From Candidatus Aenigmatarchaeota archaeon (GTDB taxonomy: Archaea; Aenigmatarchaeota; Aenigmatarchaeia; QMZP01; QMZT01): a stretch of DNA of 64,000 nt. Shown here one piece after another: positions 5,525 through 23,770 of this stretch. The stretch is from NCBI GenBank assembly GCA_026397315.1, contig JAPLVC010000001.1:62001-126000 (forward strand). Direction: 5' to 3'. The notes under the pieces were generated by a model, which did no database searches, had not been told where the DNA came from, and saw only the letters and a program-made list of their open reading frames with translations. A program made the position numbers and the translations under genes. The first letter of the stretch is position 1, and every line of letters starts with the position of its first letter.

Positions 5525-5602
5525 GTAGGAAATAAAACTGAGACTGTCCTATTAGAAAAACATTTTCGATATGCGTTTATAGCCTAAATACAACATTATG
5601 AC

Positions 5603-6280: not shown

Positions 6281-6327
6281 AATTCAAGTCAAATGAAATT
6301 TTTAACTCTCTTCGACAACCTTCCATT

Positions 6328-7362
6328 ATGAAGAGAAAACGGCTTCCCACATTAGTAGCAATGATTTTAACAATCCTGTTTATTTTCGTATTAAACCCGA
6401 GTGTTACATGGATAGCTTATGTGAACTATCCGTTATGCGATATGCGTTTGCATGATTTAGCATCAGAAATAACCAAAAACTCTACGAATGATACACAAGT
6501 TGTTTATGATATAGCATGGTGGGTTTCTAACAACGTAAACTGGAGCGCACAATTCTACTGTCAAAGGTTTCTGTCGGATTGCGAAACTGTATACAAACAG
6601 TGCGGTTCTTGCGGCGGCAAGGCAGACCTCGTAAGAAGCCTCCTCTACACGCTAGGATTTAACGAGGCGACGAAGGGCGGAACCCAAGGTGAAGACCATG
6701 AATGGAACGAAGTCTTTGTAGATGGCAGCTGGATTGCTCTAGATGCATCGGGGGACAGGTATGTTCTCTGGAACTTCTCGAAGAGGGAGCTGGAAGAGAT
6801 AAAGGGAGGAGGCAACGGCTCGTTAAGGCGGTATTCCATAATCAAGAAGTACTACCCTAACGGCACTGTGGTCGATGTCACGAACGAGTACACCGATACG
6901 GGTCATGTCGTTTTAATGGTCTTGGACGAGTATGGAAAGCCAATCGATTCCGCCACAGCGACTGCGAAGAGCCACTCGCTCATGGAAAGCGACCCAACCT
7001 TCACCGCCCCGAAGGACTCGGAACATTGCATTACGAACTCTAGCGGCATCTGCGAATTGAACTTAGGTGGTAACAACTACACATTCGCTGTCTCAAAATA
7101 TTTATTCGTCTACATGAACGAGACGGAGAGTCTTGTAAGCGAGAACTCCAACCTTGAAATAACCATAACATCAAAAATAGACCCAGAAAAGGCGGTTTTA
7201 CTGTTTGTCATAATTGCAGTAACGTCGGTTACAATTCTGTATATCTTTATCAGGTTTTATGTCCCCATGATGCGTAATTGTGTAGTTCGAAAAATTCAAA
7301 ATATATCTCATTCAAGAATTTTAATACAAGAAAGGAAAACAATTATGCTGTCTGAGAGCTGA
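6328..7362 (+). CDS. Membrane-anchored transglutaminase-like protein
   Basis: CGSCGGKADLVRSLLYTLGFNEA...GEDHEWNEVFVDGSWIALDASGD (Cys-His-Asp triad pattern); N- and C-terminal hydrophobic segments. Confidence 0.8.
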   Translation: MKRKRLPTLVAMILTILFIFVLNPSVTWIAYVNYPLCDMRLHDLASEITKNSTNDTQVVYDIAWWVSNNVNWSAQFYCQRFLSDCETVYKQCGSCGGKADLVRSLLYTLGFNEATKGGTQGEDHEWNEVFVDGSWIALDASGDRYVLWNFSKRELEEIKGGGNGSLRRYSIIKKYYPNGTVVDVTNEYTDTGHVVLMVLDEYGKPIDSATATAKSHSLMESDPTFTAPKDSEHCITNSSGICELNLGGNNYTFAVSKYLFVYMNETESLVSENSNLEITITSKIDPEKAVLLFVIIAVTSVTILYIFIRFYVPMMRNCVVRKIQNISHSRILIQERKTIMLSES

Positions 7363-7964
7363 TGATGATGTCAAAGAAATTCAACGCTGTGGAAATAAGT
7401 TCAGATTTTAGAAAACAAATCGATGGAGAGATATCTTGGATAGAAAAATCCTGTAACGACTATAAATATTTCAGACAATTTATTATAATCTCGTACATAG
7501 ATATTGATTTGTTTGTCGAAAAAACTCTAATAATTTTTTTTAACTGGTTACAAGAAAATGTTAGATATGCGAAAGCAGGGAGTAAAGAAGAATCGTTATT
7601 ATTTAAAGTGAGTAATTTTCATCTCGGAGGTCTTTTTCTGGATGCAATAAATGGAAAAAAACTGCACAGTAAGATGGAAATTTTGGAAAAATATTTAAGC
7701 AAAGAAAGTAAAACTGATTTCAAAAATTTCCGAAAAAATGTCAATATCATCAGGGATTTGAGAAACCAAGCTGCCCACGGACTTGTTACTGAAGATATGA
7801 TTAAATTCAAAGGGGAAAACGTAAGGATGAATATGGAAGTTTTCGAGGAGATAAAAAGCCTCGTTATAGGTACGATAAAATTACTTGAAGATATAGAAAT
7901 AGACCCGTATATGGACAATAAAAATTTTATGAAGAAACTTTTTCAGATTAAAACAAGTATGTAG
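7362..7964 (+). CDS. HEPN-like protein (candidate RNase/toxin)
   Basis: RDLRNQAAHGL contains R-x4-H; helical; TGATG overlap with the transglutaminase stop. Confidence 0.6.
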   Translation: MMMSKKFNAVEISSDFRKQIDGEISWIEKSCNDYKYFRQFIIISYIDIDLFVEKTLIIFFNWLQENVRYAKAGSKEESLLFKVSNFHLGGLFLDAINGKKLHSKMEILEKYLSKESKTDFKNFRKNVNIIRDLRNQAAHGLVTEDMIKFKGENVRMNMEVFEEIKSLVIGTIKLLEDIEIDPYMDNKNFMKKLFQIKTSM

Positions 7965-7990
7965 AAATCATTTTATGTTTCATATGATGA

Positions 7991-8290
7991 TTATTTCATA
8001 ACTTTGTACCCACACCTTTCCAGCAACTTCTTCGCGTTCTCTATCTCGTTGTTCTTCGGCTCAAAAATCTCTCTCAGAATTTCCAGCACGTGGTCGTTTC
8101 TAAATTCTTTATCGTTCTTGATGGACTCATAATAACTTTTTAATGCCCTGATTTCAGACTGTCTCGCCTCTTTCATTGCATTTTGAAAATCGGCATCATT
8201 TTTGAACTTCTCCCCCATTTCTTTTTCCATGTAGCGCAGTCCAAACATTCTCAATATGCTATCGAAAATCTCGGATTTTATTTGGTTCAT
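7991..8290 (-). CDS. Small charged helical hypothetical protein
   Basis: 99-aa ORF directly downstream of the R-M-like pair. Confidence 0.5.
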   Translation of the reverse strand: MNQIKSEIFDSILRMFGLRYMEKEMGEKFKNDADFQNAMKEARQSEIRALKSYYESIKNDKEFRNDHVLEILREIFEPKNNEIENAKKLLERCGYKVMK

Positions 8291-8316
8291 TTTTCTTTCT
8301 CATATCGCATAAATTT

Positions 8317-10086
8317 TTAGTTGAAAATTCTCATTTCTGGTTTCTTGTGCTTTGGATTTTTCATGGTTTCTATCAACTTTTCTCTTAATGCCGGTTTGTA
8401 AGCACAATTGATTAAATAATTTTTTGTAACGAATAGAACACTAACCGCATCGGACATGATATCGGAAATAATCTTTTTGGATTTTCCATCAAGATTACCC
8501 TCATAAACTATTGTTATAGAATCTGATTTAACTTCATCAATGTAGGTCTGATATATGATAAATTCTTTGGGTATACTCTTGACATTGGTTAAGGGGTATC
8601 GCCATTCTCCTATACTCTTACATTCAACCAATGATTCTATGCCGTTCTTTATCAGCATGTCCGGATTATTTTCAAAGAAACGAGCGATGTATGATTTATG
8701 GCATCTATCTGCAAGCTGACCCTGATACTTAATCGCATTGAGTTTAAGAAGCCGAAGCAATATTGCAACTTCTTTCTCAAAATCGCTTCTGTATTGATTT
8801 AGAATTCCTGTTGAAGGTATAATCTTTTCAACCCTTTCCAAAACTGGGTCTTCTATTATCCTCGTGTTTTCAGAGAATTTGTTTACAATCCCGATTTTGA
8901 GTTTGTTATGTTCAGTTTCAAGCATAGATTTAAGCGTACTTATGGAATAAATTTCTGTCATCTTGATTACGTCACTAATACTCTTCGAATATAATTTTGA
9001 TAGTCGCTTAAGAATGCTAAATATTTCATCTTTATTTTCAGGAGGTACATCATATTCCAAAGTGAAATCTATTTCTGTATGAAGCGCTGAAAATCCTCTC
9101 TCAAACTTAATGTTATTTTCTTTAGTAAGAGCATGAAGGATATCTCTGACCTTCATTCTCACCAGACCGAACGCTATCTCTGAATCTAAAAATTTCGAGT
9201 TTATGTCGAGTTTAATATGCTTAAGAAAATCACAAAATATCAACAACGAAGCCTTCAAACTTTCGTGTTTTTTTAGGTCTATGAACCACAAAGGCGTCTT
9301 TTTTCTGTATATTTCAAGTATCTTCAAACCTCGGTCAGTTAAGGTGTACCATCTTCCTCTAACGCCCTCTATATCACTTGACGCAATAAGACCGAGGGAT
9401 TCGCACCAATCAAGGAGCGGTCTCATATTTCTACTCATATTAATTCGGTTTCTTTTGCTTATGGAAAAATCACTATAGAATTTTTCAATGGTAACCTTGT
9501 TCTTCTCTTTATATGCAGATACAGAACGCAATAATCTTTTTTCTGTCGAGCCCATGAGAACTGGGTCAGATTTTTTTGTCCCGCATTCTAAAGCAATTTG
9601 ATGTTCATGCAAACCAGCAACACTATTCAATAAACTAAGGATATACAAACACGGTCTTGAACGAATATCCAAATATTGACCACCAGATTGAATATCAAAT
9701 ACGTTGGTAATTTTCATTCGCATTAGTTTGTCGATAAATACAGATTCCTCGTTCTCATCATTTGGACATTCTTGGTCAAAGGTATACTTAGATAGCATCT
9801 TACCCGATTCTGTGCAAAAGTAGCGGAAAGGTCTGCCCTTTCTACTAATCAACCCCATATAAGAGGCTGTGAGCAAATGGTCCCTTGCCCTGCGCATTAT
9901 CCTATCTTTCATTTTTTCTTTTCTAAATTTGCTCAACTTTGATTCTGCGAGAACCTTTGCTATCTCCTTATCATTTGGGTATTTGCTTTTTTCATTCTCT
10001 TGGTAAACCGCATTAGATATTGTCCTAATCCTGAATATGTTATGGACTCTCGTAATTGGTTTCATGTATTCCTGTTTGCCAATCAT
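8317..10086 (-). CDS. Putative restriction endonuclease: winged-helix region(s) plus C-terminal PD-(D/E)XK nuclease
   Basis: C-terminal NPDMLIKNGIESLVECKSIGEW (PD...ECK); internal wHTH-like GLIASSDIEGVRGRWYTLTDRGLKILEIY; 1 nt from a DNA methyltransferase. Confidence 0.7.
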   Translation of the reverse strand: MIGKQEYMKPITRVHNIFRIRTISNAVYQENEKSKYPNDKEIAKVLAESKLSKFRKEKMKDRIMRRARDHLLTASYMGLISRKGRPFRYFCTESGKMLSKYTFDQECPNDENEESVFIDKLMRMKITNVFDIQSGGQYLDIRSRPCLYILSLLNSVAGLHEHQIALECGTKKSDPVLMGSTEKRLLRSVSAYKEKNKVTIEKFYSDFSISKRNRINMSRNMRPLLDWCESLGLIASSDIEGVRGRWYTLTDRGLKILEIYRKKTPLWFIDLKKHESLKASLLIFCDFLKHIKLDINSKFLDSEIAFGLVRMKVRDILHALTKENNIKFERGFSALHTEIDFTLEYDVPPENKDEIFSILKRLSKLYSKSISDVIKMTEIYSISTLKSMLETEHNKLKIGIVNKFSENTRIIEDPVLERVEKIIPSTGILNQYRSDFEKEVAILLRLLKLNAIKYQGQLADRCHKSYIARFFENNPDMLIKNGIESLVECKSIGEWRYPLTNVKSIPKEFIIYQTYIDEVKSDSITIVYEGNLDGKSKKIISDIMSDAVSVLFVTKNYLINCAYKPALREKLIETMKNPKHKKPEMRIFN

Positions 10087-10087
10087 A

Positions 10088-11365
10088 TCACACCTTCTGA
10101 AATATTACAATGCTTTCTCTCGAAATTGTCTCTCCAGTTGGAGTCTTCCAAGGTATCATTTTCATAGGTATTTTTCGGAAGAAACTATTAACATGTCTGA
10201 ACCCTGCCGCATTACCAAGCTCAACCGTGACCTTTTCCATGTCTAAAGATCTTTTTCTTATCATTCTGTCACCGACAACAACGCAGTAGTATGCTCCATC
10301 TTTAACTATTCGATAAACTTCCTCAAAAGTTTTCAGATAGTCAAAAAAGAAAGGTAAAGCATCTATCACTCTTTCTTCATCCGTTTTGGCAAGTTCATAT
10401 AATACATTTATTGTTGTTTTTGATGGTAACTCTTTTAGTCTGCCTACGACATCTTTATTGACCATTGAACCCAAAGCGTTCTTTTCGGCTTTATTCATCG
10501 AACCATGATTCATTTTTAGCCAAGCAACAGAAAGTTTTGACCATCTTGCGTAGCCTATGGTATTTTTCTCCTCTCCATATGGAGGTGAAGTTATAGAACA
10601 ATCGAATTCATTGTCCTTGAATGGGAGTTTTCTTGCATCATTTTTTGTGATTCTGACTGTGGGTATTCTTTTTAATCCAAGTTTTTCTATTTCTCTTACG
10701 AACTCGTTCATCATTTTCAGAGAGTCAAATGTGTTTTTGCTGAAAACCGCAAAAGTATTGGGTTTGAATTTTGACAATTCATCCGGCTGTAATATTCTAA
10801 TGAATCTGCTGGAACGATGGTCTATGTTCGACACATCGAACACTGTTTTTGAGAAAACTACCTTGAGAAAATCTTTTATATCATCATTTTTTACTTTGTT
10901 TATCTCATTCAAAATAAAATCCAACCGACAGGCAACGTCTTCCCTAAACCAATGTAGAAGATTGGGCAATATATCCTTCGGTGGTTCGATAAGTTTATTG
11001 GTTTTAAACCCGTCGTTAATGCCAGAAAGAAAATCTGTCATATTAAAATTTAACTTCCTGAATTCGATGGGTGTTGATTTTACTTTTGTGAGTAAAACAG
11101 CAAGAGGATTTATGTCATTACCAACCGAGTTTCTCCTCAGAAGCAAAGATTCGACAAGTACCGTACCACTACCACAAAAAGGGTCGAGAATAGTATCGTC
11201 TTCCTTAGAATAGACTTTAATCAATCTATTTGCTATTTGTGGTATCATCCTGGCTGGATACTTATGTATTCCATGAGTAAGATAACTCGTATCAGCTCCA
11301 GCAAAATCCCAATCTTCTATCTTTTTCCCACTCAATGTAGTTTGTGCGGTTTTCCTATTCTTCAT
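10088..11365 (-). CDS. Site-specific DNA methyltransferase
   Basis: THGIHKYPARMIPQIANRLI, DPFCGSGTVLVESLL (SAM motif I), TSPPYGEE (catalytic motif IV). Confidence 0.88.
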   Translation of the reverse strand: MKNRKTAQTTLSGKKIEDWDFAGADTSYLTHGIHKYPARMIPQIANRLIKVYSKEDDTILDPFCGSGTVLVESLLLRRNSVGNDINPLAVLLTKVKSTPIEFRKLNFNMTDFLSGINDGFKTNKLIEPPKDILPNLLHWFREDVACRLDFILNEINKVKNDDIKDFLKVVFSKTVFDVSNIDHRSSRFIRILQPDELSKFKPNTFAVFSKNTFDSLKMMNEFVREIEKLGLKRIPTVRITKNDARKLPFKDNEFDCSITSPPYGEEKNTIGYARWSKLSVAWLKMNHGSMNKAEKNALGSMVNKDVVGRLKELPSKTTINVLYELAKTDEERVIDALPFFFDYLKTFEEVYRIVKDGAYYCVVVGDRMIRKRSLDMEKVTVELGNAAGFRHVNSFFRKIPMKMIPWKTPTGETISRESIVIFQKV

Positions 11366-11510
11366 GAAATATTGTTATGTTAATTGCTTAAAAACCAAAT
11401 TTTACAGTACATGAATAACAATAAAATATTTGATTTTCAAATTTGACATTTTTCTTTTATACAAAAATGTTTAAACATATCTTTTTATAACGTACAGATA
11501 ACCCTAAAAT

Positions 11511-11642
11511 ATGCACGCAAGCTCTGAACTCAATGTGGACAAAAGTATTGTAGATTCTATAGCTGAAATCACAAAGAGAGTTATCAGAGAAGATTCTCTG
11601 GAAATAAGAACTTTACCTAAAAACAAAGGGATAGTGAAATGA
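11511..11642 (+). CDS. Small ORF (43 aa) coupled to the downstream nuclease-like ORF
   Basis: Not in ORF track; MHASSELNVDKSIVDSIAEITKRVIREDSLEIRTLPKNKGIVK; ATGA overlap with 11639; T-rich TATA-like sequence upstream. Confidence 0.5.
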   Translation: MHASSELNVDKSIVDSIAEITKRVIREDSLEIRTLPKNKGIVK

Positions 11643-12118
11643 AGAACGTTGGTGACTACGGAGAAAAGATGGTTAGGGATATCCTAAGAAGAAAGGGATT
11701 TAACGCTAAAATCAAGGGAAAACGAACTCACGGTTATGATTTAGCCGTCAAAAAAAATGATAAGAAGACAGAAGTACAGGTTAAAACTATTCAAAAAGGG
11801 AAATTATTTCAGTTGACAGTAACGAATTTTCTTAAAATCGACATCATCGACGGAAAACAGAAGGTAAAAGGAAAAAATGATATCGGCTTGGATATTCCAT
11901 GGGTATTCGTGAAAAAAATTAAAAATGGTAATGAGTTTTTCATTCTTAGCAAATCGAACGTGCAGGATATCGTCTTGAGGAGCTATAGAGCAATGCTGAT
12001 AAAAAATAAGGGTTTTAGACCTCAAAATCATTACTCCTTTCATTGTACAATCGATGCAGACAAATTGACAAAATGGAAGAATAATTGGAAGCTTATAAAA
12101 AATAGCCTCCACCCGTAA
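11639..12118 (+). CDS. PD-(D/E)XK-like nuclease domain protein
   Basis: VGDYGEKMVRDILRRKGFNAK...GYDLAVKKNDKKTEVQVKTIQ (E...D...E-x-K arrangement). Confidence 0.65.
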   Translation: MKNVGDYGEKMVRDILRRKGFNAKIKGKRTHGYDLAVKKNDKKTEVQVKTIQKGKLFQLTVTNFLKIDIIDGKQKVKGKNDIGLDIPWVFVKKIKNGNEFFILSKSNVQDIVLRSYRAMLIKNKGFRPQNHYSFHCTIDADKLTKWKNNWKLIKNSLHP

Positions 12119-12180
12119 CGAGTAGTTCAAAACAGCAAGTATCTATGTATTAAAATAGAAAAATTATACATGATGATAGA

Positions 12181-13278
12181 ATGAAAACAGTAAAGTTAAT
12201 ACACACATCAGATTTACACCTTGGGAAAACATTCAGTGAGCTAGGGGATGAGTCAAAGCTCCATAGAAATGATTGTCAAAACGTGTTTTCAAACATTATT
12301 GACTTGTGCATAAAAGAAAAGGTAAATGCACTGCTTATTGCTGGTGACCTGTTTGATAGTCCAGAACCTAATAAATCGCTAGTAAAATTTGTTATCGGAG
12401 AATTCGAAAGACTAAAAAACGAGAAAATTAGCGTTTTTATCTCATCCGGTAACCATGATCCATACAAAAAGGGGAGCGTCTGGCTTGAGCATAGATTTCC
12501 ATCGAATGTAATAGTTTTCAGTTCTGTCGATATGGAAGCCAAGGAGCTTGATGGAATAACAATATACGGGTTAGCTTATACAAACGATGCAAAAGAGCCG
12601 ATGAAGAACTTTGAGGCTGAAGATTCCGATAACTTCAAGGTTGGTTTGGTTCATGGCTCTACGACGGATATCAATTGGAATGAAGAGCCTGAAGCCGGAT
12701 ATAGGAGAATAACAAAAACTGACGTGGACAACTGCAAACTAGACTATGTCGCACTCGGTCATTTTCATGACATTATAGAAATCAAAAGCAAAACGAGGTG
12801 TTTCTATTCAGGCTCACCAGAGCCATTATCATTCAAAAACAAAGGAGATTCTTGTGTTCTATTGGTTACCCATGTAGATGGTAAAACTGTCGTTAAACCC
12901 ATAAAAACTAACATCAAGACATTCGAAACTTTGGAGATAGACTGCACAAATATGGAGTCAGACTCTGACATAAGAAAAATTCTTGAGAAAAATTCTGGTG
13001 AAAACAAGATTTTAAGACTAGTAATAACGGGCAGTCCATCTCTTGACTTGAATCTGGATAAAGAATTTCTTAAAAAGGAATTTGAGTCCAAGTACTTTTG
13101 CCTAAAAGTTGTTGATAATGTTCATTTACCTGAGAATCTAACCGAAGATGAGACAATCAGAGGACACTTCATCAGATTGGTTAAATCGGAAATAGATAAA
13201 GAGAAAGACTCTGAAAAGAAAAAAAGGCTTGAAAATGCTCTCAGACTGGGCGTAGGCTATCTGGATAAAAAACTGTGA
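12181..13278 (+). CDS. Mre11/SbcD/YhaO-like metallophosphoesterase
   Basis: TSDLHLGKTF, LIAGDLFDS, SSGNHDPY, GLVHGS, LGHFHD metallophosphatase motifs. Confidence 0.9.
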   Translation: MKTVKLIHTSDLHLGKTFSELGDESKLHRNDCQNVFSNIIDLCIKEKVNALLIAGDLFDSPEPNKSLVKFVIGEFERLKNEKISVFISSGNHDPYKKGSVWLEHRFPSNVIVFSSVDMEAKELDGITIYGLAYTNDAKEPMKNFEAEDSDNFKVGLVHGSTTDINWNEEPEAGYRRITKTDVDNCKLDYVALGHFHDIIEIKSKTRCFYSGSPEPLSFKNKGDSCVLLVTHVDGKTVVKPIKTNIKTFETLEIDCTNMESDSDIRKILEKNSGENKILRLVITGSPSLDLNLDKEFLKKEFESKYFCLKVVDNVHLPENLTEDETIRGHFIRLVKSEIDKEKDSEKKKRLENALRLGVGYLDKKL

Positions 13279-13282
13279 ATGT

Positions 13283-15004
13283 ATGGTTCAACTACTAAGG
13301 CTCGATGTTGAAGGATTTGGGAAGTTCGATAGACACAAAACCATCAATTTTGAAAACGGCATAAATTTTATTACAGGACTAAACGAGACTGGCAAGAGCA
13401 CCATTCTTGAAGCAATTATGGCATCTATTTTCAAATACACCAGAGGTCAAATCGAACAGTTTCTATGCTGGAAAAATAATGATGTGTGCCGAACTGCCCT
13501 TACGTACAAGACAGAAAAAGGCGAAACATTCAAGATAACTTCGGACTACAAGTCTGGGAGAAGAAGACTTGACAAAATAAAGAAAGGCAATTCTGAAGAA
13601 ATAGCGACTCTGGACAAAACAATCGAGCCTTTCATAAAGAAACACTTCGGTTTTGATGACAAGAAAGTATTCGAGAATACCGCCTTCATAAGACAGTCTC
13701 AAATGGCTATCTTAGATGATAATTCTGTTAGAAATAAGATTAAGGACATGATTGAAGAGGTATTTGCCGGCAGAGCTGAGGCATCGGCAACAAAGGCGCT
13801 CGCAAAAATAAGAAAGATAGCAAAAGATGCGACAAAGGAAACAGAGGTTCTTGAAGCGGAACAACACGAGCTAAAGAAAAATCTCAGGTCGGCGGAGGAT
13901 AAAAGAGAATCTGTTTCTAGAGACAGCGGAGAGTTTGAGAAGGTAGACAAACAACTCAATGAGAAGAGCAAGGAACTTGAAAAACAACAGAAAAACAAGA
14001 AACTCTTCGATGAAAAAGAAAAACTACTGAAGGAAAAGGAACATCTGGACGAACAGATGACAAAGGTCGATGAGTTGTTAGAAACGCTTTCTGAGGGAAA
14101 AGAACCCCAGAGAGAACAACCTTCCAACAAGAAAACAACCAGTGTCATTTTAATGGTCATAGGTGGTTTGCTCTCGATTACTGTAATAGGAGCAATAATA
14201 GGCATTCCGTTGATAATCTGGGGAATTATGAAATTAAGAAAGAAAGAAGTAGCGATTAAACCGATAAAAAGTGACGACGAAAAAATATCCAAATACAGAA
14301 AGGAAAAGAAGGAAATCCTCAACAAAAAAGCGGTCATTGAAACGAGACTAGAAGAGTATAGTCTAGTAAATTTTAATATAAATGATTTCGACGAACTTGA
14401 GACTCTTAAAAAAGATGTGGACTCGCTGAAGGAGAAAAAAACAGAACTAAAGACTAGCATCAAAACCACGACCTCTCTTGTAGAGAGTCCTGAAGATGTA
14501 AGAGAAATACTAGATGCGAATAAAGAAAAGCGACTCGGTTTTATTATGAAAATCGAGGAGCACGAACTAGCAGCAAAATTCTTGGAGATGGCTGAATCAG
14601 AAGTACATCACAAATTAACTCCAGCCATTGAGAAAAATTCCAAACCCATTTTAAAGAAAATAACGAACGAGAGGTACTCCGATTTAAGGGTGGAGGAGGA
14701 TACCCTCGATATCAAAATCAAGGCTCCCGAAATTAAAGATTATGTTGACGTGTTCTTTCTTAGTCAAGGCGCAAGAGACCAGTTATATTTCGTGTTAAGA
14801 GTAGTAATGTCAGATTTGCTTGGAGGAGAAGCAAACATACCTCTCATACTTGACGACCCTTTCCATAACTTTGACGACCCGAGACTAAGGAATACAATCG
14901 ACACTCTAAAACAAATCGCTAAAAACAAACAAATAATTTTGATTTCCCATAGACCTTATCATCATGAATTCAAAACTGTTTGCGATAATGTTGTTGAGTT
15001 ATGA
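13283..15004 (+). CDS. Rad50/SbcC/YhaN-like SMC-type ATPase with central hydrophobic segment
   Basis: Walker A GLNETGKST, signature FLSQGARDQL, Walker B LILDDPFHNFD; coiled coils; hydrophobic VILMVIGGLLSITVIGAIIGIPLIIWGIM; no CxxC hook. Confidence 0.9.
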   Translation: MVQLLRLDVEGFGKFDRHKTINFENGINFITGLNETGKSTILEAIMASIFKYTRGQIEQFLCWKNNDVCRTALTYKTEKGETFKITSDYKSGRRRLDKIKKGNSEEIATLDKTIEPFIKKHFGFDDKKVFENTAFIRQSQMAILDDNSVRNKIKDMIEEVFAGRAEASATKALAKIRKIAKDATKETEVLEAEQHELKKNLRSAEDKRESVSRDSGEFEKVDKQLNEKSKELEKQQKNKKLFDEKEKLLKEKEHLDEQMTKVDELLETLSEGKEPQREQPSNKKTTSVILMVIGGLLSITVIGAIIGIPLIIWGIMKLRKKEVAIKPIKSDDEKISKYRKEKKEILNKKAVIETRLEEYSLVNFNINDFDELETLKKDVDSLKEKKTELKTSIKTTTSLVESPEDVREILDANKEKRLGFIMKIEEHELAAKFLEMAESEVHHKLTPAIEKNSKPILKKITNERYSDLRVEEDTLDIKIKAPEIKDYVDVFFLSQGARDQLYFVLRVVMSDLLGGEANIPLILDDPFHNFDDPRLRNTIDTLKQIAKNKQIILISHRPYHHEFKTVCDNVVEL

Positions 15005-16386
15005 AAAAATTTGATTTGAACATCGAGAAGGTACTTGAAGATTGGGAAGTTTTTCACGCGTTGAGGGAAGTTATAGCCAATGCGATTGACGAACAACTGC
15101 TGACAAAAACGAAGGAAATTCAAATTTTGAAGGATAAACATAATAAATGGCACATACGAGATTTTGGAAGAGGGCTAAAATACGAGCATCTAACACAGAA
15201 TGAATGTGAGGAGAAGTTAAAACATCCAGAGTTAGTTATCGGAAAGTTTGGCGTTGGCTTAAAGGACGCTCTGGCTACGTTCGAGAGGAGAAAAATCAAA
15301 GTCATAATAAAATCGAGACATGACGACATAACTCTTGGAATGTCTTCAAAGCACGGATTTGAAGATATGTTGACCTTACATGCGTTTATCTCGGAGCCCT
15401 CGGACAAAAATTTAATAGGAACGGAGTTTATTTTTGAGGGAGTAAAGGACAAAGACATAGAACTAGCAAAGGAGTTCTTTTTAAAATTCTCTGAGGAAAC
15501 CTTATTGGAAGATACGCCGCTTGGACAAGTCCTTAGAAAAGGTAAATCCAAAGCCAAAATATTCATTAATGGTTTAAGAGTTGCTGAAGAAGAAAATTTC
15601 CTATTTTCTTATAACATAACTTCCCTGACCAAAGCCATGAGAAAGGCACTAAACAGGGAAAGAACCCATGTTGGTAGAACAGCATATACGGATAGAATAA
15701 AGTCTATCCTTCTAGAGTGTAAGAAAAAAGAGGTTGCTGAATTATTGGTCGACGATTTGGACAACTTTGAAACGGGAAATTTGCACGACGAATTAGCTTG
15801 GGTTGATGTTTCTGCTCATGCCTGTAAACTGTTAAACGCTGCAGAGAAGGTAGTGTTTTTAACCTCATCTGAATTGATTCGAGCCAAGGATATGGTAGAT
15901 AGGGCTAAGAATGATGGCTTTGACATTGTAATGGTTCCCGAAAACGTAAAACAGAAGATAAGGGGAATTAAAGACCTTGAGGGGAATGTGATAAGAGACC
16001 TGGAAGAATACAGAGCAGAGTGGAATGAAAGTTTTGAATTCAAATTTGTCAAAGAAAAAGAGTTAACAAAACAGGAAAGAGAAGTGTTTTCTAAAACAGA
16101 TTTGATACTAAAGCTAATTGGCGGGAGACCAAAAAACGTAAAAGATATATTAATTTCCGAGACAATGAGACTAGAAACTATGGGTTATAGCGAAGCAGTT
16201 GGATTATGGGAAGCGGATAACCAACGAATAATTATTAAAAGGGAACAGCTTAGAAACTTAAGACCGTACGCAGGAACGCTTTTACATGAAGTAGCGCATG
16301 CAATAAGTGGCGCGTCTGATATTTCCAGAGAATTTGAAAATGAACTAACTAAAGTTATAGGCATTGTTTCATCAGAAAAACTATGA
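15001..16386 (+). CDS. GHKL (Hsp90-like) ATPase with C-terminal HExxH metalloprotease-like domain
   Basis: REVIANAIDE (N box), DFGRGL, GKFGVGLKDA; C-terminal LLHEVAHAISGASDISREFENEL; ATGA overlap with the Rad50-like ORF. Confidence 0.85.
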   Translation: MKKFDLNIEKVLEDWEVFHALREVIANAIDEQLLTKTKEIQILKDKHNKWHIRDFGRGLKYEHLTQNECEEKLKHPELVIGKFGVGLKDALATFERRKIKVIIKSRHDDITLGMSSKHGFEDMLTLHAFISEPSDKNLIGTEFIFEGVKDKDIELAKEFFLKFSEETLLEDTPLGQVLRKGKSKAKIFINGLRVAEEENFLFSYNITSLTKAMRKALNRERTHVGRTAYTDRIKSILLECKKKEVAELLVDDLDNFETGNLHDELAWVDVSAHACKLLNAAEKVVFLTSSELIRAKDMVDRAKNDGFDIVMVPENVKQKIRGIKDLEGNVIRDLEEYRAEWNESFEFKFVKEKELTKQEREVFSKTDLILKLIGGRPKNVKDILISETMRLETMGYSEAVGLWEADNQRIIIKREQLRNLRPYAGTLLHEVAHAISGASDISREFENELTKVIGIVSSEKL

Positions 16387-16478
16387 CATCAAACTTTGAT
16401 TATTTATTTTCGGAATATATCTTTACCTAATAAGCCTGCTAAACGACCTTTTCATTAAGGAGAAAAACACAAAAAGAA

Positions 16479-16817
16479 CTACTTTTTGCCAATAATTATG
16501 TTCAATCTATACTGCTTATCTATTTTCGGGTCAACCTTGAAATCCCACATTATTGCGGAATCCTTGCCTGCTTTGAACGATTCTACGATGTTATCAGCAA
16601 TTTCCTTATTGACTAAATCCTTACTTTTTGCCGTGAAGTTCAGCAAAATCCCCGTTGCATTTCTTTTGATTTTTGTTAGCTCTTTCATAGCCGCTTGTTC
16701 AATATCATCACTTTCGATTATCACCTGTGAGATGGAATTTGCTGACGATAATAAAGTCATTAAGTCTGCCTTATCGAACCTCTTTCCTAAAATCTCATCT
16801 TTTATTATCCTATCCAT
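16479..16817 (-). CDS. FtsZ C-terminal-domain-like mini protein (112 aa)
   Basis: FDKADL resembles T7 loop LDFADV; ATGILLNFTAKSKDLVNKEIADNIVESFKAGKDSAIMWDFKVDPKIDKQYRLNIIIGKK aligns by eye to the FtsZ at 28597 (ATGALINVCGGEDITIKECQEIVEAVTTKLNPDAKIIWGAQIVKELGDTIRSMLIITGVK). Confidence 0.65.
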   Translation of the reverse strand: MDRIIKDEILGKRFDKADLMTLLSSANSISQVIIESDDIEQAAMKELTKIKRNATGILLNFTAKSKDLVNKEIADNIVESFKAGKDSAIMWDFKVDPKIDKQYRLNIIIGKK

Positions 16818-16948
16818 ATTTACCGCCCCCTTAATTATTTAGTAAAGCGAAATATATTGCATACTTTTTGATACCTATTTTAGCTAAAGGGGTAAGCAAA
16901 ACGACCCTTTTATTAGGGAGAAAATAGGCTTTTTGCTAAATCTCAGTT

Positions 16949-17464
16949 TTATTTTATCCTATCAGTATGTTCATGTACAATTTTCCTTCGCTTCGTATTT
17001 ATCTTCTCTTTATTCTTATGGTAATAATCAAGATGATATTTTCGATACCATTCTTTGTACCTTTCCTTATATTTTTTGTCCCGAGCCTTTACATAAGGTC
17101 TTTTTGCGTATTCCTTTCTGTATTGCTTTATTTTCTCCGTGTTCTCAGGTTTCGAAACGTACTCTTTGAAGCGGACTTTTTGGCGTTCTTTGTGTTCTTT
17201 ATTGTATTTTTGATGATACTTCTGGTACCATTCATTCTTTTCTTGTTTCCGCTTCTTGTCGGCTTTCCTAAATTTAGGACTTCGGACATATTTTTTGTTA
17301 TATTTCTTCCTTTTCTCCTTGTTTTCAGTATTTGAAAGATAAGCCTTCAGATATGCTTTCTTCTTTTCTTTGTTTTTCTGATAGTATTGTTTCATATGAG
17401 TAAGTAATCTTTCTTTGTTTCGCAGATAATATTGACGATTGTATTCAGTTAAATCTTTAGGCAT
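16949..17464 (-). CDS. Lys/Tyr-rich repetitive protein
   Basis: Recurring YxxxYxxxxKEKxxxYxKxY pattern; AT-rich island ORF. Confidence 0.6.
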   Translation of the reverse strand: MPKDLTEYNRQYYLRNKERLLTHMKQYYQKNKEKKKAYLKAYLSNTENKEKRKKYNKKYVRSPKFRKADKKRKQEKNEWYQKYHQKYNKEHKERQKVRFKEYVSKPENTEKIKQYRKEYAKRPYVKARDKKYKERYKEWYRKYHLDYYHKNKEKINTKRRKIVHEHTDRIK

Positions 17465-17470
17465 ATTTTC

Positions 17471-18106
17471 TCAACCCATCTTTCTCCCAACAGGAACTCC
17501 TAACAAATGTAAAGCCCTTGCTGTCAGCGAATCTGTATAAATGACATAAATCCTTCTATCTTTTCTGATTGGAAATTTCTTTTTGAACACTTTTTGGAGT
17601 TTCCTTCCCAACCTATTCAGTTCGAAAGAGTCTGCACTCCATATTTTTGCCATGTTCAGTTTATTGTGTATATGTCCGTGGTCATGGGTATAGTTAACAA
17701 TGAAGTCCAAATCTTCGGATTTCCTCAACGGAAGCCACCTACACGATTTCAACATTTTGTAAACAGTGGGAGACATCGTCTCGTTTGCATAATAGCCAAC
17801 AGAGGATGGGCTTAATTTCATGTCTTTAGCGATTTGAATTATTCTTCCTCCCCTTTGCCTTGCTTTCATAATTTCAGGATATTTAATTACCCTTTCTCTT
17901 GTCATTAGTGAGTACGTTTCGAGTAAATCCTCAACCGAAACAGCTATGTTATCACCATTTTCCATAGTTTTGAGGCTTTTTGGGATTCTTTTAGGCTTAT
18001 TGAATCTACTTTCCCAGAAACATTGTCTTGAACAATATCGGGAACTTTTTCTATATACAATAATATGTTTTCCACAAGTTGAACATTTAATGATGCGACG
18101 TGGCAT
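17471..18106 (-). CDS. Zinc-finger/HTH protein with degenerate LAGLIDADG homing-endonuclease-like domain
   Basis: CSTCGKHI...RYCSRQC; GGRIIQIAKDMKLSPSSVGYYA (HTH); EDLDFIVNYTHDHGHIHNKLNMAKIWSADSFELNRLGRKLQKVF...ALHLLGVPVGRKMG. Confidence 0.6.
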   Translation of the reverse strand: MPRRIIKCSTCGKHIIVYRKSSRYCSRQCFWESRFNKPKRIPKSLKTMENGDNIAVSVEDLLETYSLMTRERVIKYPEIMKARQRGGRIIQIAKDMKLSPSSVGYYANETMSPTVYKMLKSCRWLPLRKSEDLDFIVNYTHDHGHIHNKLNMAKIWSADSFELNRLGRKLQKVFKKKFPIRKDRRIYVIYTDSLTARALHLLGVPVGRKMG

Positions 18107-18169
18107 ATTTGAGAATTTGAACTTGGATATAAATGGCTATGTTTAAACGAATGTTTAAACTTTTTGTTC

Positions 18170-18420
18170 CGATAGGATTGCAATCACATTATTGCTATGG
18201 GATTGCGTAGATTGCAATTGGAACATTATTGCAATCGGATTGGTGCAACATTGCATATCAGCAGATTGCACCTTCGGAAAAATATTTGTAGTAGGTATCT
18301 ATCTTTATAGAGTAGCATATTGAGGGATTGCAGTACATTGCTATTGGGGATTGCAATTGCACCATTATTATTGGAGGATTGTTGTTATAGCAATAATGTA
18401 TTGCAATGGTGGCGCAATAA
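18170..18420. repeat. Clustered ATTGC/ATTGCAAT iteron-like motifs
   Basis: About 13-14 copies of ATTGC or GCAAT in ~250 bp, several as the palindrome ATTGCAAT. Confidence 0.7.
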
Positions 18421-18428
18421 TAATCTTA

Positions 18429-19199
18429 TTATTTTGTGTTGTATCCTATGCCCTCTATATCATTTCTGCCAACAGAATTAGTGATTTCAGAACATTGAGT
18501 AGAATGGATTTCTGCACCATCCAGGTCTTCTTCTGAGGGAATATCGAGGGTATTTATATTCTGAGATAATACTTCAAAGCTATCTTTGTTTACCACGCTT
18601 TCTTTACCGCTTGAATATTTGAGTCTAACAAAAAATCCTTTGAGGTCTACGCTACCAGTATTGAACAATCCCAAAGATAAAATCCCATCGGAAAAGGATG
18701 CTCTCTGTATCAGTATCGCAGCTTTTCCGCAAAACAAATTTTTCTCCTTCTGTGGTTCATAATAAATGTCAAAAAGGGAACCATAACAATACTTTGAATA
18801 AGGCGTCAAATCGCCAACAAGAGGTATATGACCTTCCCAATTAGACATCGGTACATGACAAGACATTTCATCTCCTACATGAAAATTTATTTCTGGCGTT
18901 GGGTTTTTCATGTCTGATACGACATATCTTACAATGCAGGTATCACCACTTTTGGTGAGGTCAATTTTAAATTTCACATACTTTTCAGAATTTCCAACTG
19001 TCGAATAAACAATTGAATCGGTACATGAAGTCATGTAGACTTGGCTTGTTTTTGCACACTCTTGGTCATCAGGAGAACAATCATAAGTTGCTTTGACAGG
19101 ACTAATGACACCGACATTACTCCCAGTCGTACAACCAGAAATTAAAACAACGCCAAATAACAAAACCGCTAGACTGCAATGAATTAATTTAGCCTTCAT
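18429..19199 (-). CDS. Predicted lipoprotein
   Basis: Signal peptide and lipobox LLFGVVLISGC; Cys-containing ectodomain. Confidence 0.7.
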   Translation of the reverse strand: MKAKLIHCSLAVLLFGVVLISGCTTGSNVGVISPVKATYDCSPDDQECAKTSQVYMTSCTDSIVYSTVGNSEKYVKFKIDLTKSGDTCIVRYVVSDMKNPTPEINFHVGDEMSCHVPMSNWEGHIPLVGDLTPYSKYCYGSLFDIYYEPQKEKNLFCGKAAILIQRASFSDGILSLGLFNTGSVDLKGFFVRLKYSSGKESVVNKDSFEVLSQNINTLDIPSEEDLDGAEIHSTQCSEITNSVGRNDIEGIGYNTK

Positions 19200-19292
19200 A
19201 TACTAATATAGTATCGAAGACTAATAAATCTACTACCTTTCTACGCTCTTTTAATAACTATGCAGTTATTCCGTTCAAACTAAAAATATTTT

Positions 19293-19562
19293 ATGGTTAA
19301 TATTGATTGGGAACTATATAGCTGGCTCGTAAGAGGCAGTCAAAGAAAAGCAATAATTGAGGCTTTAGAAAAACCTAAGATTCCCAGCCAGATAAGGAAC
19401 GACACAAAGTTATCAATTGCTAACGTATCAAAAATACTCAAGTTGTTTGTTGATAATGGAATTGCAGAATGTCTTAATCCGAATACGAAAATGGGCAAGC
19501 TCTACAAATTGACTCCGAAAGGTCAAGCTTTAAGAGAGGAACTGATAAGAAAAGAAGCCTGA
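19293..19562 (+). CDS. Winged-helix transcriptional regulator
   Basis: SQRKAIIEALEKPKIPSQIRNDTKLSIANVSKILKLFVDNGIAECLNPNTKMGKLYKLTPKG. Confidence 0.8.
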   Translation: MVNIDWELYSWLVRGSQRKAIIEALEKPKIPSQIRNDTKLSIANVSKILKLFVDNGIAECLNPNTKMGKLYKLTPKGQALREELIRKEA

Positions 19563-19631
19563 ACGAGTTTGTCGAAGAAGGCATAGCGAAATATCCATTC
19601 TATATAAAAAAACAATAGATAAACAGATATT

Positions 19632-20708
19632 ATGTATTTCAGAGATAATAAAAAATCATGTAAAAGTATTTCTTTTGGTGATGGTCTCTATTTTCCTTAT
19701 TATGAATTTAGCAAGTTACAACAATGGTTGGAAGTTGGACAAAGAATAGAAAGGGTTTATAATTTGCATAGAGAACTATCAATCCTTTTAGATGGTTTAG
19801 ATTCAAAACATGGACCGATATTACAAAAAACGTATGATAAAACAACTGGATTCACATCAGCAACTGCTAAGCCAGTAAAACAATTTCTTCAAGATGAACA
19901 GATAAAATATTTATGCAGACTAATAGAAGAACTGTTTAACAAAGATTTAGAGTTGATTTCAAAGGCTGATATTAGAATTAGAGAAATGAGACCATTCAAA
20001 AATTTGATGGAAAATTTAAAGATTTACAAAGATGGAAATAATGTATCAAAGGAAAATGTTGAAAAATATTTTGACTTTATGATTTTAGATTCGTTGCGTC
20101 ATGATCTATTAGAATTATGGGATGATATTAGAAAATTTCTGGATGATAAAACAAATGAAATTATACTCCCTGAACCAACGATTGAGAATAGAGAATTTTA
20201 CTCGTATTTTCTTCAAAGTAGAGATTGTTATGTCGAGGCTAACGAAGAAATCGCATTAGCAGTAATTAGAAAAGCCGTTGAGGATATTCTAACCAGACTG
20301 TGGATTTTACATTTTGATAAATTAAATGATATTGATTTGAAGAACAGAAAGGAATTAGATAATCTTCCGGGATTTTTAAAGGGTAGACAAATATTATCGG
20401 AACAAGAGTTTAGAGAAGCTCAACCATTTGTAAAATATGGAAATGCAGGAATTCATATTTTAGGTGAAATTCCAAAGGAAAAATTAACGGAAAATGCAAG
20501 AAGAATGATTAATAATGGCATTAATTTTGTTAATAGTCTATCAAAAAAATACATCGAATTGATGAGAAAAAAGAATTACAGTAATATTGAATTTACCAAA
20601 ACAGGTTTTTCAATCAACATTGGGAAATTAGAAAATTATATCTGTAGCAAGACTTCTGACGATATTTTTAATAAAGAAGATATAGACGAATTTAGAGAAG
20701 AAGAATAG
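19632..20708 (+). CDS. Hypothetical protein with HEPN/DUF4145-like C-terminal half
   Basis: EANEEIALAVIRKAVEDILTRLW...FLKGRQILSEQEFREAQPFVKYGNAGIHILGEIPKE resembles DUF4145-type sequences. Confidence 0.55.
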   Translation: MYFRDNKKSCKSISFGDGLYFPYYEFSKLQQWLEVGQRIERVYNLHRELSILLDGLDSKHGPILQKTYDKTTGFTSATAKPVKQFLQDEQIKYLCRLIEELFNKDLELISKADIRIREMRPFKNLMENLKIYKDGNNVSKENVEKYFDFMILDSLRHDLLELWDDIRKFLDDKTNEIILPEPTIENREFYSYFLQSRDCYVEANEEIALAVIRKAVEDILTRLWILHFDKLNDIDLKNRKELDNLPGFLKGRQILSEQEFREAQPFVKYGNAGIHILGEIPKEKLTENARRMINNGINFVNSLSKKYIELMRKKNYSNIEFTKTGFSINIGKLENYICSKTSDDIFNKEDIDEFREEE

Positions 20709-20757
20709 TGGTTCGAAATTATTTCATTGAGAAGCATTAACTACAATGTGAGAATCT

Positions 20758-20904
20758 TTACTCAGGCACTTCCATCAAAACCAAGTCTCCATTAGGATAT
20801 TCCGACCAGTCAAGAACCTGACCCTTCTTCCATCCCTTGCGCCTGATTTTCTCGTATGGTATGCTTATAACGAAAGTCCCACTGATTTGTTGAAGTTTTG
20901 GCAT
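20758..20904 (-). CDS. SpoVT/AbrB-like small protein (48 aa)
   Basis: Not in ORF track; MPKLQQISGTFVISIPYEKIRRKGWKKGQVLDWSEYPNGDLVLMEVPE. Confidence 0.65.
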   Translation of the reverse strand: MPKLQQISGTFVISIPYEKIRRKGWKKGQVLDWSEYPNGDLVLMEVPE

Positions 20905-21036
20905 CTAATCACCTTTAGTTTATACCTATAAATAAACTATATGCAATATAAAGTTTTAAGGGTATAATTAATTAGGTGGCGCTAAAAAGCTTAACCTAGG
21001 ATACTGATTATTAAATAAAATTAATTTTGCCTTTTA

Positions 21037-21804
21037 TCATACGCTCTCGCTCTTCTCGAAGAAATAAGCGCCCAGAAAAACCATGACCGCGGATATGCAC
21101 AAAAGCACGGCGAAATCCAGCGCGGCCGGGAACGTCGACTGGCCTATCAGGGAGGCGCGCATGCCGTCGATGCCATAGGTGAGCGGGTCGATGTAAGACA
21201 CGACCTTTATGAAAGGGGGCAGGTTGTCAATCGGGTAGAGCGCTCCTGAGAGGAAGAACATCGGGAAAATGACGAAGTTCATTATCAGGTTGAAACCCTG
21301 CATGTCTTTCATCTTGGATGCGAATATCAGGCCGAGGCCTATGAACGAAGTCGATATGAGGAACATGAAAACCACCGCCAGCGCTAGCGAAAACAGGCTG
21401 GTCACTGCGAAGCCGAGAACCATCGAGATTAGCAGGATCGCCATGCCCTGTATGAGCGAAGTGGTCGCTCCGCCGGCTATCCTGCCGAGAACGATCGAGA
21501 CGCGGCTCACGGGCGCTATCATTATTTCCTTGAGGAAGCCGAACTCCCTGTCCCAGAGGACTGATATGCCCGCGAACATCGAAGTGAATAGCATGCCCAT
21601 GCCCACTATGCCGGGCACGAGAAACGTGATATAGCCTACGCCGCCTTCCACACCGGGTATTGCCATTTTCGAGAATCCCATCCCGAGGAACGCCAGGAAA
21701 AGCAGCGGCATGGCCAGCATGCCTATTATCCTGGACTTGGCCCTGACAAACCTTTTCATCTCCCTCAGCCACAAAACGTAAATAGCGGTAAAGTTTATTA
21801 TCAT
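21037..21804 (-). CDS. ABC-2 type transporter permease
   Basis: Six hydrophobic segments; NLPPFIKVVSYIDPLTYGIDGMR typical of ABC-2 permeases. Confidence 0.88.
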   Translation of the reverse strand: MIINFTAIYVLWLREMKRFVRAKSRIIGMLAMPLLFLAFLGMGFSKMAIPGVEGGVGYITFLVPGIVGMGMLFTSMFAGISVLWDREFGFLKEIMIAPVSRVSIVLGRIAGGATTSLIQGMAILLISMVLGFAVTSLFSLALAVVFMFLISTSFIGLGLIFASKMKDMQGFNLIMNFVIFPMFFLSGALYPIDNLPPFIKVVSYIDPLTYGIDGMRASLIGQSTFPAALDFAVLLCISAVMVFLGAYFFEKSESV

Positions 21805-21815
21805 GACAACAACCC

Positions 21816-22808
21816 TTACATGCCGTGACCCCTTCTCATCATCGGGCCGCGGAATCCGTTATGATCCGCTTCCTGCTCTCTGATGGTCTTGCCCGTGAAA
21901 TACAGGAACACGTCCTCGAGGCTCGGTTTATGCAGGTCAACGGAGCTTATGGTCATGCCGTGCTTTGGCGCGGCACACACGAGCTCGGGTATCCTTTTTT
22001 CCCCGTGATCCATCGTGAGGCACAGCTCGCCTTCGCGCATCTTGTGGTTTTTTATCCACTTGAGCGTCTTTACGAATTTCATGTATTTGCCCGTGCTGCC
22101 CTCTATCCTGAGGCACACGACATCGCCTCCCAGAACGTCTTTCAGCTTCTTCGGGGTGTCGAGCGCTATGATCTTGCCGCGGTCGATTATGGCTATCCTG
22201 TCGCAGAGGTAATCCGCTTCCTCCATGTAATGCGTAGTGAGTATGATGGTCACGCCGGCCTCCTTGTTGAGCTTCCTTATGTATTCCCATATGTGGCGCC
22301 TGGTCTGAGCATCGAGGCCAAGCGTAGGCTCGTCGAGGAACAGCACTTTCGGCCTGTGAATAAGGCCCCTCGCAATCTCCAGCCGCCGCTTCATGCCGCC
22401 GGAGTATTTTTCCACCAGAACGTCTGCCTTGTCCGTGAGTTCGACCAGCGCCAGAACGTCTCTTACCCTTTCCCTTATCACGCCGGCCTTCATGCCATAC
22501 ATCATGCCGTGGAACTCGAGATTCTCCTTGCCCGTCAGCTTGTTGTCGAGGGCAGGGTCCTGGAACACGATGCCTATGCTTTTCCTCACGTCTTCCCTGC
22601 TCTTGTTCACGTCGAAGCCGGCAACCTCCGCGCTGCCTGACGTCGTCTTTAGAAGTGTGCACAGCATGTTTATGGTCGTCGTCTTGCCGGCTCCGTTGGG
22701 ACCCAGCAGGCCGAACAGTTCGCCGGACTCGACCGAGAACGAGATGCCGTCGACTGCAGTGAAAGAATTGAACTTCCTGATCAGCTTATCGACTTTTATA
22801 GCGTACAT
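21816..22808 (-). CDS. ABC transporter ATP-binding protein (DrrA-like)
   Basis: GPNGAGKTTT, YSGGMKRRLEIARGLIHRP, VLFLDEPTLGLD. Confidence 0.93.
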   Translation of the reverse strand: MYAIKVDKLIRKFNSFTAVDGISFSVESGELFGLLGPNGAGKTTTINMLCTLLKTTSGSAEVAGFDVNKSREDVRKSIGIVFQDPALDNKLTGKENLEFHGMMYGMKAGVIRERVRDVLALVELTDKADVLVEKYSGGMKRRLEIARGLIHRPKVLFLDEPTLGLDAQTRRHIWEYIRKLNKEAGVTIILTTHYMEEADYLCDRIAIIDRGKIIALDTPKKLKDVLGGDVVCLRIEGSTGKYMKFVKTLKWIKNHKMREGELCLTMDHGEKRIPELVCAAPKHGMTISSVDLHKPSLEDVFLYFTGKTIREQEADHNGFRGPMMRRGHGM

Positions 22809-22891
22809 AAAATCACACGGTTATTTCTTGCTCAGAAGAGAGATAAATGCATTCGGATGTTTAAATGCTTTTCATGCGGCTGTTGCAAATG

Positions 22892-23377: not shown

Positions 23378-23480
23378 ATAGAAATTGCACAGCTTTCTTA
23401 AAAAAGTTCACAGAAAATGATAAAAAGAAAAAAGGGCGAAAAACCGCCTTGAGTATAATTTTTGGAAGCCTGGGAAGCCC

Positions 23481-23585: not shown

Positions 23586-23770
23586 AATCCCACACTCCCG
23601 TTTATAAACATCGAAAACAGTCTTTGATTTTTTATGCGCCGGACCGGAATATAAAGCTTACGCTGCCATGCGGATTTAAGCTTTAACGCCCATATAATTT
23701 CCAGTTATTCCGGCTGTCCTGCGACCGTTCTGCTTTTCTGGTTTTTATGGTATGAAGCCCAATTAAAAAC

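What the first reader, a model, noticed from the sequence alone, without database searches (positions are those of the whole stretch)
12181..16386. Candidate undescribed conflict system: Mre11-like phosphoesterase, membrane-linked Rad50/YhaN-like ATPase, and GHKL-ATPase/HExxH-protease fusion
Three same-strand genes are packed with a 4-nt gap and then an ATGA overlap inside the mobile island. Seen directly: full metallophosphatase motifs; Walker A/signature/Walker B; GHKL motifs plus a C-terminal HEVAH. Established: Mre11-Rad50/SbcCD and YhaO-YhaN pairs act on DNA ends, and GHKL ATPases act as ATP-gated clamps (Hsp90, MutL, MORC, Topo VI). Inference: DNA-end sensing by the nuclease/SMC pair is coupled through an ATP-gated GHKL module to proteolysis, giving an abortive-type defence.
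Basis: partly seen in the sequence, partly recalled or inferred. Interest (0 to 1): 0.88.

Follow-up and report, generated by a model that had tools for sequence, protein, structure and literature searches.

The report
Mobile Hsp90-like ATPase–metalloprotease with Mre11–Rad50
A mobile DNA island in a small archaeon carries a very conserved, undescribed protein that joins an Hsp90/gyrase-type ATP switch to a predicted zinc protease; here it is co-transcribed with an extra Mre11–Rad50 DNA-end machine, but most relatives across bacteria and archaea stand alone, so the protease is the real unit and the trio is one recurrent use of it.

Summary
The three genes are real, intact and positioned as described. 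Gene 1 is an Mre11/SbcD nuclease with all catalytic motifs. Gene 2 is a 573-aa Rad50-like ATPase with a hydrophobic, probably membrane-inserting, segment where the zinc hook would be (YhaN-like). Gene 3 is a GHKL ATPase with a C-terminal HExxH zincin domain.

The island is real: in a same-family relative the flanking genes lie about 55 bp apart, so window ~1.66–23.77 kb is an insertion, with an integrase at its left edge. The host has its own Mre11 and Rad50 elsewhere.

A dedicated three-part system is only partly supported. The GHKL–zincin protein is a separately mobile family (at least 225 relatives), mostly without Mre11–Rad50. The exact trio was found in two other archaea. The order Mre11–Rad50–GHKL recurs with unrelated zinc-hook Rad50s in a Nitrosopumilus and in Novosphingobium: three independent pairings against 0.2 expected.

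Best reading: an ATP-gated metalloprotease of mobile/defence islands, laid out like the anti-phage GHKL–nuclease VcSduA, sometimes coupled to a DNA-end sensor. Function is untested. No library model or paper that I could search describes the fusion or the trio.

The parts
12181..13278 (+). Mre11/SbcD-type (YhaO-like) phosphoesterase, 365 aa, accessory copy
   Evidence: 71% and 67% identical to L011 and L012. The host has a separate Mre11-like gene of 425 aa, L104:4547-5824.
13283..15004 (+). Short Rad50-like (YhaN-like) coiled-coil ABC ATPase, 573 aa, no zinc hook
   Evidence: 66% and 56% identical to L011 and L012. A separate 783-aa Rad50 with a CPVC hook is elsewhere in the genome.
14132..14239 (+). 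Hydrophobic, probably membrane-inserting segment of the Rad50-like protein (residues 284-319)
   Evidence: Hydropathy, also in L011 and L012; DUF5362 match to residues 284-336, 5.1e-7. Similar hydrophobic stretches lie mid-chain in the Monoglobus AAA ATPase of L122.
15001..16386 (+). GHKL (Hsp90/gyrase-type) ATPase fused to a C-terminal zincin, 461 aa
   Evidence: AlphaFold2 pLDDT 89; Foldseek full-length Hsp90/HtpG 2e-9, then GyrB/ParE.
16123..16383 (+). C-terminal zincin-like domain, HEVAH 429-433 plus invariant D440 and E446
   Evidence: Invariant in alignment A7, including remote phage and plasmid relatives; most of the best, sub-significant PDB matches are zincins (Wss1 0.011, WLM, M48, projannalysin).
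1770..3014 (+). Tyrosine integrase at the left edge of the island
   Evidence: Phage_integrase 5.7e-17.
1661..23770 (.). Inserted island carrying the trio (relative to same-family genome G139)
   Evidence: In L125 the homologues of window 1124-1660 and 23771-24589 are about 55 bp apart, with collinearity continuing to about window 33.5 kb. The AT-rich part is about 2.5-20.7 kb.

Best explanation
The core is gene 3: a mobile, self-contained ATP-gated metalloprotease. Its N-terminal GHKL plus middle region (Hsp90/gyrase fold) would dimerise and close on ATP, clamping a DNA or protein ligand and positioning or releasing the C-terminal zincin to cut proteins. This copies the layout of the anti-phage protein VcSduA, with a protease in place of the nuclease. 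In this island, in two other archaea, in a Nitrosopumilus and in Novosphingobium it is placed behind an accessory Mre11-Rad50 pair that most likely supplies DNA-end recognition (here at the membrane). Foreign or protein-blocked DNA ends would be processed by Mre11-Rad50 while the GHKL protease is activated to cut DNA-bound or essential proteins, stopping the invader or the infected cell. Shown: gene order, motifs, family conservation, horizontal mobility, island setting and recurrent independent pairing. Inferred: dimer clamping, proteolysis, physical coupling and the defence role.
For: The motifs of both domains are conserved in 85 of 88 homologues across archaea and bacteria. The fold matches full-length Hsp90 and GyrB/ParE. 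The C-terminal domain ranks nearest to zincins. Horizontal spread: 45-72% identity between archaea and many bacterial phyla, on plasmids and in viral contigs, but in only 2 of 158 genomes of the window's phylum. Neighbours in other loci include type I and III R-M genes, PARIS/Lamassu-type ATPases, Fic, toxin-antitoxin genes, pAgo and a RAMP-superfamily (CRISPR-type) protein. The window island also carries a type II R-M methylase (1.9e-92). In that phylum the Rad50-like and GHKL genes occur in exactly the same two genomes. Mre11-Rad50 lies directly upstream of GHKL in three independent groups against 0.2 expected (P about 0.001). A solitary GHKL-nuclease, VcSduA, protects against phage and was tested with ATPase- and nuclease-site variants (PMC12137116).
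Against: No activity, phage or expression data exist. Most GHKL-zincin genes have no Mre11-Rad50 neighbour, and some lie among ordinary metabolic genes (L002), so neither the trio nor a defence role is obligatory. Excluding the window's own group from the count leaves two independent pairings (about 0.02 by the same Poisson estimate). Similarity of the C-terminal domain to named zincin families is not significant on its own (best 0.011). One halophile copy has lost HExxH. Some phage relatives lack it entirely, so the family core can exist without protease activity.
Confidence: 0.45

Rival explanations
1. DNA-protein-crosslink processing. The GHKL-zincin protein is a DNA-clamping protease like Wss1/SPRTN that digests proteins covalently or tightly bound to DNA (terminal proteins, relaxases, trapped topoisomerases), and Mre11-Rad50 then cleans the blocked end. 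It protects the mobile element or host DNA rather than killing the cell.
For: The best, though weak, structure-library match of the zincin domain is Wss1, followed by WLM and minigluzincins; Wss1 and Spartan are described as minigluzincins (PMC4559962). Mre11-Rad50 acting on protein-linked DNA ends is established (discussed in PMC10586767). The GHKL fold includes gyrase/topoisomerase-type ATPases.
Against: Match E-values are not significant. A repair enzyme would be expected to be less sporadic and less mobile. Many neighbours are defence or mobile genes. No known DNA-binding module was recognised.
Confidence: 0.22
2. A solitary GHKL-zincin cargo gene happens to sit behind an unrelated accessory YhaO-YhaN pair; the two are co-transcribed but have no shared function, as in many defence islands.
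For: Most GHKL loci lack Mre11-Rad50. Near relatives L010, L015, L018 and L022 lack it. Three of four sphingomonad plasmids with the related SbcC have no GHKL hit.
Against: Same order and tight spacing in three independent groups, above the loci's own background. ATGA overlap in the window. Exact co-occurrence in the phylum.
Confidence: 0.25
3. A Lamassu-like system: the Rad50-like protein is an LmuB-type sensor and the GHKL-zincin protein is its protease effector.
For: An LmuB profile matches residues 2-563 of the Rad50-like protein at 4.1e-12. Lamassu effectors include proteases (PMC10586767).
Against: No LmuC and no recognised LmuA among the proteins scanned. Walker B has Asp rather than the Gln substitution. 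A motif-complete Mre11 is present, and Rad50 profiles score better.
Confidence: 0.05

Closest known systems
VcSduA (Shedu type I-D, GHKL + PD-(D/E)xK nuclease), PMC12137116
   Same: Single protein: N-terminal GHKL ATPase, clamp-like middle domain, C-terminal hydrolytic effector; sporadic, on mobile regions
   Different: Effector is a zincin with HExxH, not a DUF4263 nuclease; no PADLOC match; here in one operon with Mre11-Rad50
MORC / paraMORC GHKL ATPases of restriction-modification islands, PMC2292703
   Same: GHKL + S5-type module, laterally mobile, found among R-M genes
   Different: The described C-terminal partners are RE-fold nuclease, TIR or unknown domains; no zincin fusion and no Mre11-Rad50 partner is described in the text read
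YhaO-YhaN (bacterial metallophosphoesterase + Rad50-like ATPase pair)
   Same: Monoglobus pair L122: Mre11 28% identical over 99%; ATPase of 701 aa with mid-chain hydrophobic stretches and no zinc hook
   Different: Window Rad50 is shorter (573 aa) and archaeal; no GHKL gene next to the bacterial pair examined
SbcCD / Mre11-Rad50
   Same: All catalytic motifs; solved Mre11 and Rad50 structures matched
   Different: Accessory copy; no zinc hook; host has its own set
phrog_6077 phage proteins (function unknown)
   Same: GHKL + middle region homologous, 1.5e-19; some viral-contig members keep HExxH
   Different: 23-30% identity; many lack the zincin; distinct from T4 rIIA (phrog_612)
Lamassu (LmuB)
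   Same: Rad50-like protein of similar size; protease effectors known in some Lamassu
   Different: No LmuC or LmuA recognised; Mre11 present

Membership tests
Mre11/SbcD nuclease | Calcineurin-type phosphoesterase with all metal/catalytic motifs | tested here: met
Mre11/SbcD nuclease | DNA nuclease activity on ends | not testable with these tools
   Needs purified protein
Rad50 (canonical) | ABC ATPase head halves with Walker A, signature, Walker B | tested here: met
Rad50 (canonical) | Zinc hook CxxC at the coiled-coil apex | tested here: not met
   No CxxC; hydrophobic segment 284-319 instead
YhaN-like Rad50 | Paired with a YhaO-like phosphoesterase | tested here: met
   4-nt gap to the Mre11 gene
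YhaN-like Rad50 | Membrane segment in place of the hook | tested here: inconclusive
   Predicted by hydropathy in all three trio loci and in Monoglobus, but not in the Sphingobium YhaN protein; topology untested
GHKL ATPase superfamily | N-box Asn and G1/G2 glycine motifs | tested here: met
   100% conserved in 88 homologues; fold match to Hsp90 and GyrB
Zincin metallopeptidase | HExxH with a downstream third ligand | tested here: met
   HExxH plus conserved D440/E446; which one is the ligand is not known
Zincin metallopeptidase | Proteolytic activity | not testable with these tools
   No assay
Wss1/SPRTN-type protease | Significant homology to a WLM or SprT domain | tested here: inconclusive
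   Best E 0.011 (PDB, Wss1) and about 0.05 (Pfam WLM, SprT-like)
MORC/paraMORC | GHKL + S5 module with the described family-specific C-terminal domains | tested here: inconclusive
   GHKL met; C-terminal zincin not among the partners described
Lamassu | LmuB together with LmuC | tested here: not met
   LmuB-like profile hit only; no LmuC in the proteins scanned
Shedu | DUF4263 nuclease domain | tested here: not met
   No SduA/DUF4263 hit in gene 3
Dedicated three-gene system | GHKL gene consistently found with Mre11-Rad50 | tested here: not met
   6 loci (3 independent groups), window included, of 88 homologues

The most novel reading that the evidence does not exclude
A conserved, undescribed class of ATP-gated (Hsp90/gyrase-type) metalloproteases acts as a stand-alone anti-invader effector across bacteria and archaea and has repeatedly been wired to different Mre11-Rad50 complexes. 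This makes a DNA-end-triggered protease system: a prokaryotic counterpart of nuclease-plus-protease handling of protein-blocked or foreign DNA ends.
Probability: 0.27. Interest if true: 0.85.

Novelty: new variant of a known kind. Interest (0 to 1): 0.64.

Why it matters
If gene 3 is an ATP-switched protease of mobile islands, it adds proteolysis to the effectors that GHKL ATPases are known to control (so far nucleases and TIR domains). The conserved family would be easy to test from cultured bacteria that carry it (Priestia, Lysinibacillus, Myroides, Janthinobacterium). The recurrent link to Mre11–Rad50 would give a simple model for how DNA-end recognition can switch on a protease, bearing on defence and on DNA–protein-crosslink processing.

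Tried and rejected
T4 rIIA relationship: window gene 3 matches phrog_6077, not the rIIA families. PADLOC-known system: gene 3 has no match; gene 2 only LmuB/mad/GajA-type ATPase matches. att repeats for the island: none convincing. Relatives of the short Rad50 in viral contigs: none. In plasmids, only partial matches below 80% coverage. Citrobacter HExxH fragment (L009): probably an IS-truncated remnant, not a separate family. Structure of the Rad50-like protein: job never finished. Fold search against viral structures: machine busy. Papers: ten searches; none found describes a GHKL–HExxH fusion or the trio, but subscription journals and preprints are mostly not held.
Full report
What is there. 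The three genes at 12181-16386 are exactly as described: a 4-nt gap between genes 1 and 2, and an ATGA overlap between genes 2 and 3. Gene 1 is an Mre11/SbcD-type phosphoesterase with every catalytic motif. Gene 2 is a Rad50-like ABC ATPase of only 573 aa. It has a complete Walker A, signature (LSQG), Walker B (LILDD) and H-loop, no CxxC zinc hook, and one hydrophobic segment of about 36 residues at the place where the hook would be. Gene 3 has a GHKL ATPase at its N terminus and HEVAH near its C terminus.

The surroundings. The genes lie in an AT-rich island (about 35% GC against about 52%) that begins with a tyrosine integrase at 1770-3014. In a genome of the same family (G139, L125), the homologues of the two genes that flank it here (1124-1660 and 23771-24589) lie about 55 bp apart, and the neighbouring genes stay collinear to about window 33.5 kb. 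Everything from about 1661 to 23770 is therefore an insertion relative to that genome. The island also carries a methylase matching type II R-M methylases (10088-11365, 1.9e-92), followed 1 nt downstream by a 589-aa gene with an E-C-K stretch that may be its endonuclease (direct reading only). The host genome has its own 783-aa Rad50 with a CPVC hook (L105:7096-9447) and a separate 425-aa Mre11-like gene (L104:4547-5824), so the window pair is an accessory copy.

Gene 3 is the real unit. A profile scan of species genomes found 225 relatives, of which the best 80 were returned (47-72% identity). Plasmids gave seven full-length relatives (44.6-55.6%) and viral contigs a few more. By record titles, carriers include Aenigmatarchaeota, Nanoarchaeota, Nitrosopumilus, Lokiarchaeota and halophilic archaea, Chloroflexi, Bacillota, Proteobacteria, Bacteroidetes and Acidobacteria. 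In 88 aligned sequences the ATP-site residues are invariant, and HExxH with E446 is kept in 85. In the window's own phylum only 2 of 158 genomes carry it. This is the pattern of a mobile gene under strong functional constraint.

Fold. The AlphaFold2 model is confident (mean pLDDT 89). Foldseek finds full-length Hsp90/HtpG first (2e-9), then GyrB/ParE ATPase fragments; TM-scores are low (about 0.3), so the domains are arranged differently. A profile of the C-terminal domain gives no significant match, but most of its best matches are zincin proteases: Wss1 (0.011), WLM, M48, projannalysin and proabylysin. Pfam gives MPTase-PolyVal, SprT-like and M85, also below threshold. I read this as a small, unnamed zincin domain.

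Is the trio a system? The exact trio, with orthologous Mre11 and Rad50, occurs in L011 (Aenigmatarchaeota) and L012 (Nanoarchaeota). The same order with unrelated, zinc-hook Rad50s occurs in L025 (Nitrosopumilus: 372 aa, -4, 809 aa, +41, GHKL) and in L072/L073 (Novosphingobium: 381 aa, -4, 1024 aa, +39, GHKL). In L004, a sphingomonad plasmid, a related SbcCD pair lies about 3 kb away. All other loci read lack the pair directly upstream of GHKL, including L010 and L015, which group with the trio proteins, and L018 and L022, the sisters of L025. Using the rate of Mre11-like genes elsewhere in these loci as background (3 of 970 ORFs), 0.2 would be expected at this position and three independent groups are seen (P about 0.001). 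The numbers are small, and one group is the one that prompted the question; without it there are two groups (about 0.02 by the same Poisson estimate). My conclusion is repeated, optional coupling rather than a fixed three-gene system.

How it most likely works. The nearest tested analogue is VcSduA, a single protein with a GHKL ATPase, clamp-like middle region and C-terminal nuclease that protects against phage and was tested with ATPase- and nuclease-site variants (PMC12137116). Gene 3 has the same plan with a protease in place of the nuclease. MORC and paraMORC GHKL proteins in restriction islands follow the same logic with nuclease or TIR partners (PMC2292703). I therefore favour an ATP-gated metalloprotease used in conflict with mobile elements, which in some lineages receives its DNA-end signal from Mre11–Rad50. 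The main rivals are crosslink processing (Wss1/SPRTN-like protease plus end-cleaning nuclease) and simple cohabitation.

Compared with the known. Gene 1 is a member of the Mre11/SbcD family. Gene 2 is Rad50-like but fails the zinc-hook test; its best relatives by layout are YhaN-type ATPases paired with YhaO-type phosphoesterases (Monoglobus L122). Lamassu was considered because an LmuB profile spans gene 2 (4.1e-12), but no LmuC was found and a complete Mre11 is present. Gene 3 belongs to the GHKL superfamily. Its GHKL-plus-middle part is homologous to phrog_6077 phage proteins of unknown function, some relatives of which also carry HExxH, and a clostridial plasmid protein has three GHKL copies followed by one HExxH domain.

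Limits. Only 80 of 225 relatives could be read. The paper library lacks most subscription journals. The Rad50 model did not finish and the viral fold search could not be run. The background estimate for co-occurrence comes from the same small set of loci. Everything about activity is inference.

Noticed in passing
window 1661-23770: Empty site: in same-family relative G139 the flanking genes are about 55 bp apart, so a 22-kb insertion with an integrase at one edge sits beside an adenine-phosphoribosyltransferase-like gene; relative G140 has about 3.4 kb of other DNA between homologues of the same two genes.
   Followed up: partly
window 8317-11365 (-): Adjacent methylase (type II R-M profile, 1.9e-92) and 589-aa gene with no significant Pfam, NCBIfam or PADLOC match, a likely but unnamed restriction partner.
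   Followed up: no
L121:3943-7257: Alkaliphilus plasmid protein of 1104 aa with three tandem GHKL modules and one C-terminal HExxH domain (HEEVHH), near a cas3 gene.
   Followed up: partly
L112:7974-9248, L113:7968-9299: Viral contigs encode single GHKL + HExxH proteins (about 24-30% identical to gene 3); other phage relatives (L118-L120) lack HExxH.
   Followed up: partly
window 16949-17464 (-): 171-aa protein made of lysine/tyrosine-rich near-repeats, function unknown.
   Followed up: no
window 6328-7362: Transglutaminase-like protein with hydrophobic segments at both ends inside the island.
   Followed up: no
L005:5949-14204: Salinibacter plasmid: a GHKL-zincin gene lies inside a type I R-M operon, between S and R, followed by a SprT-family protease gene.
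   Followed up: no
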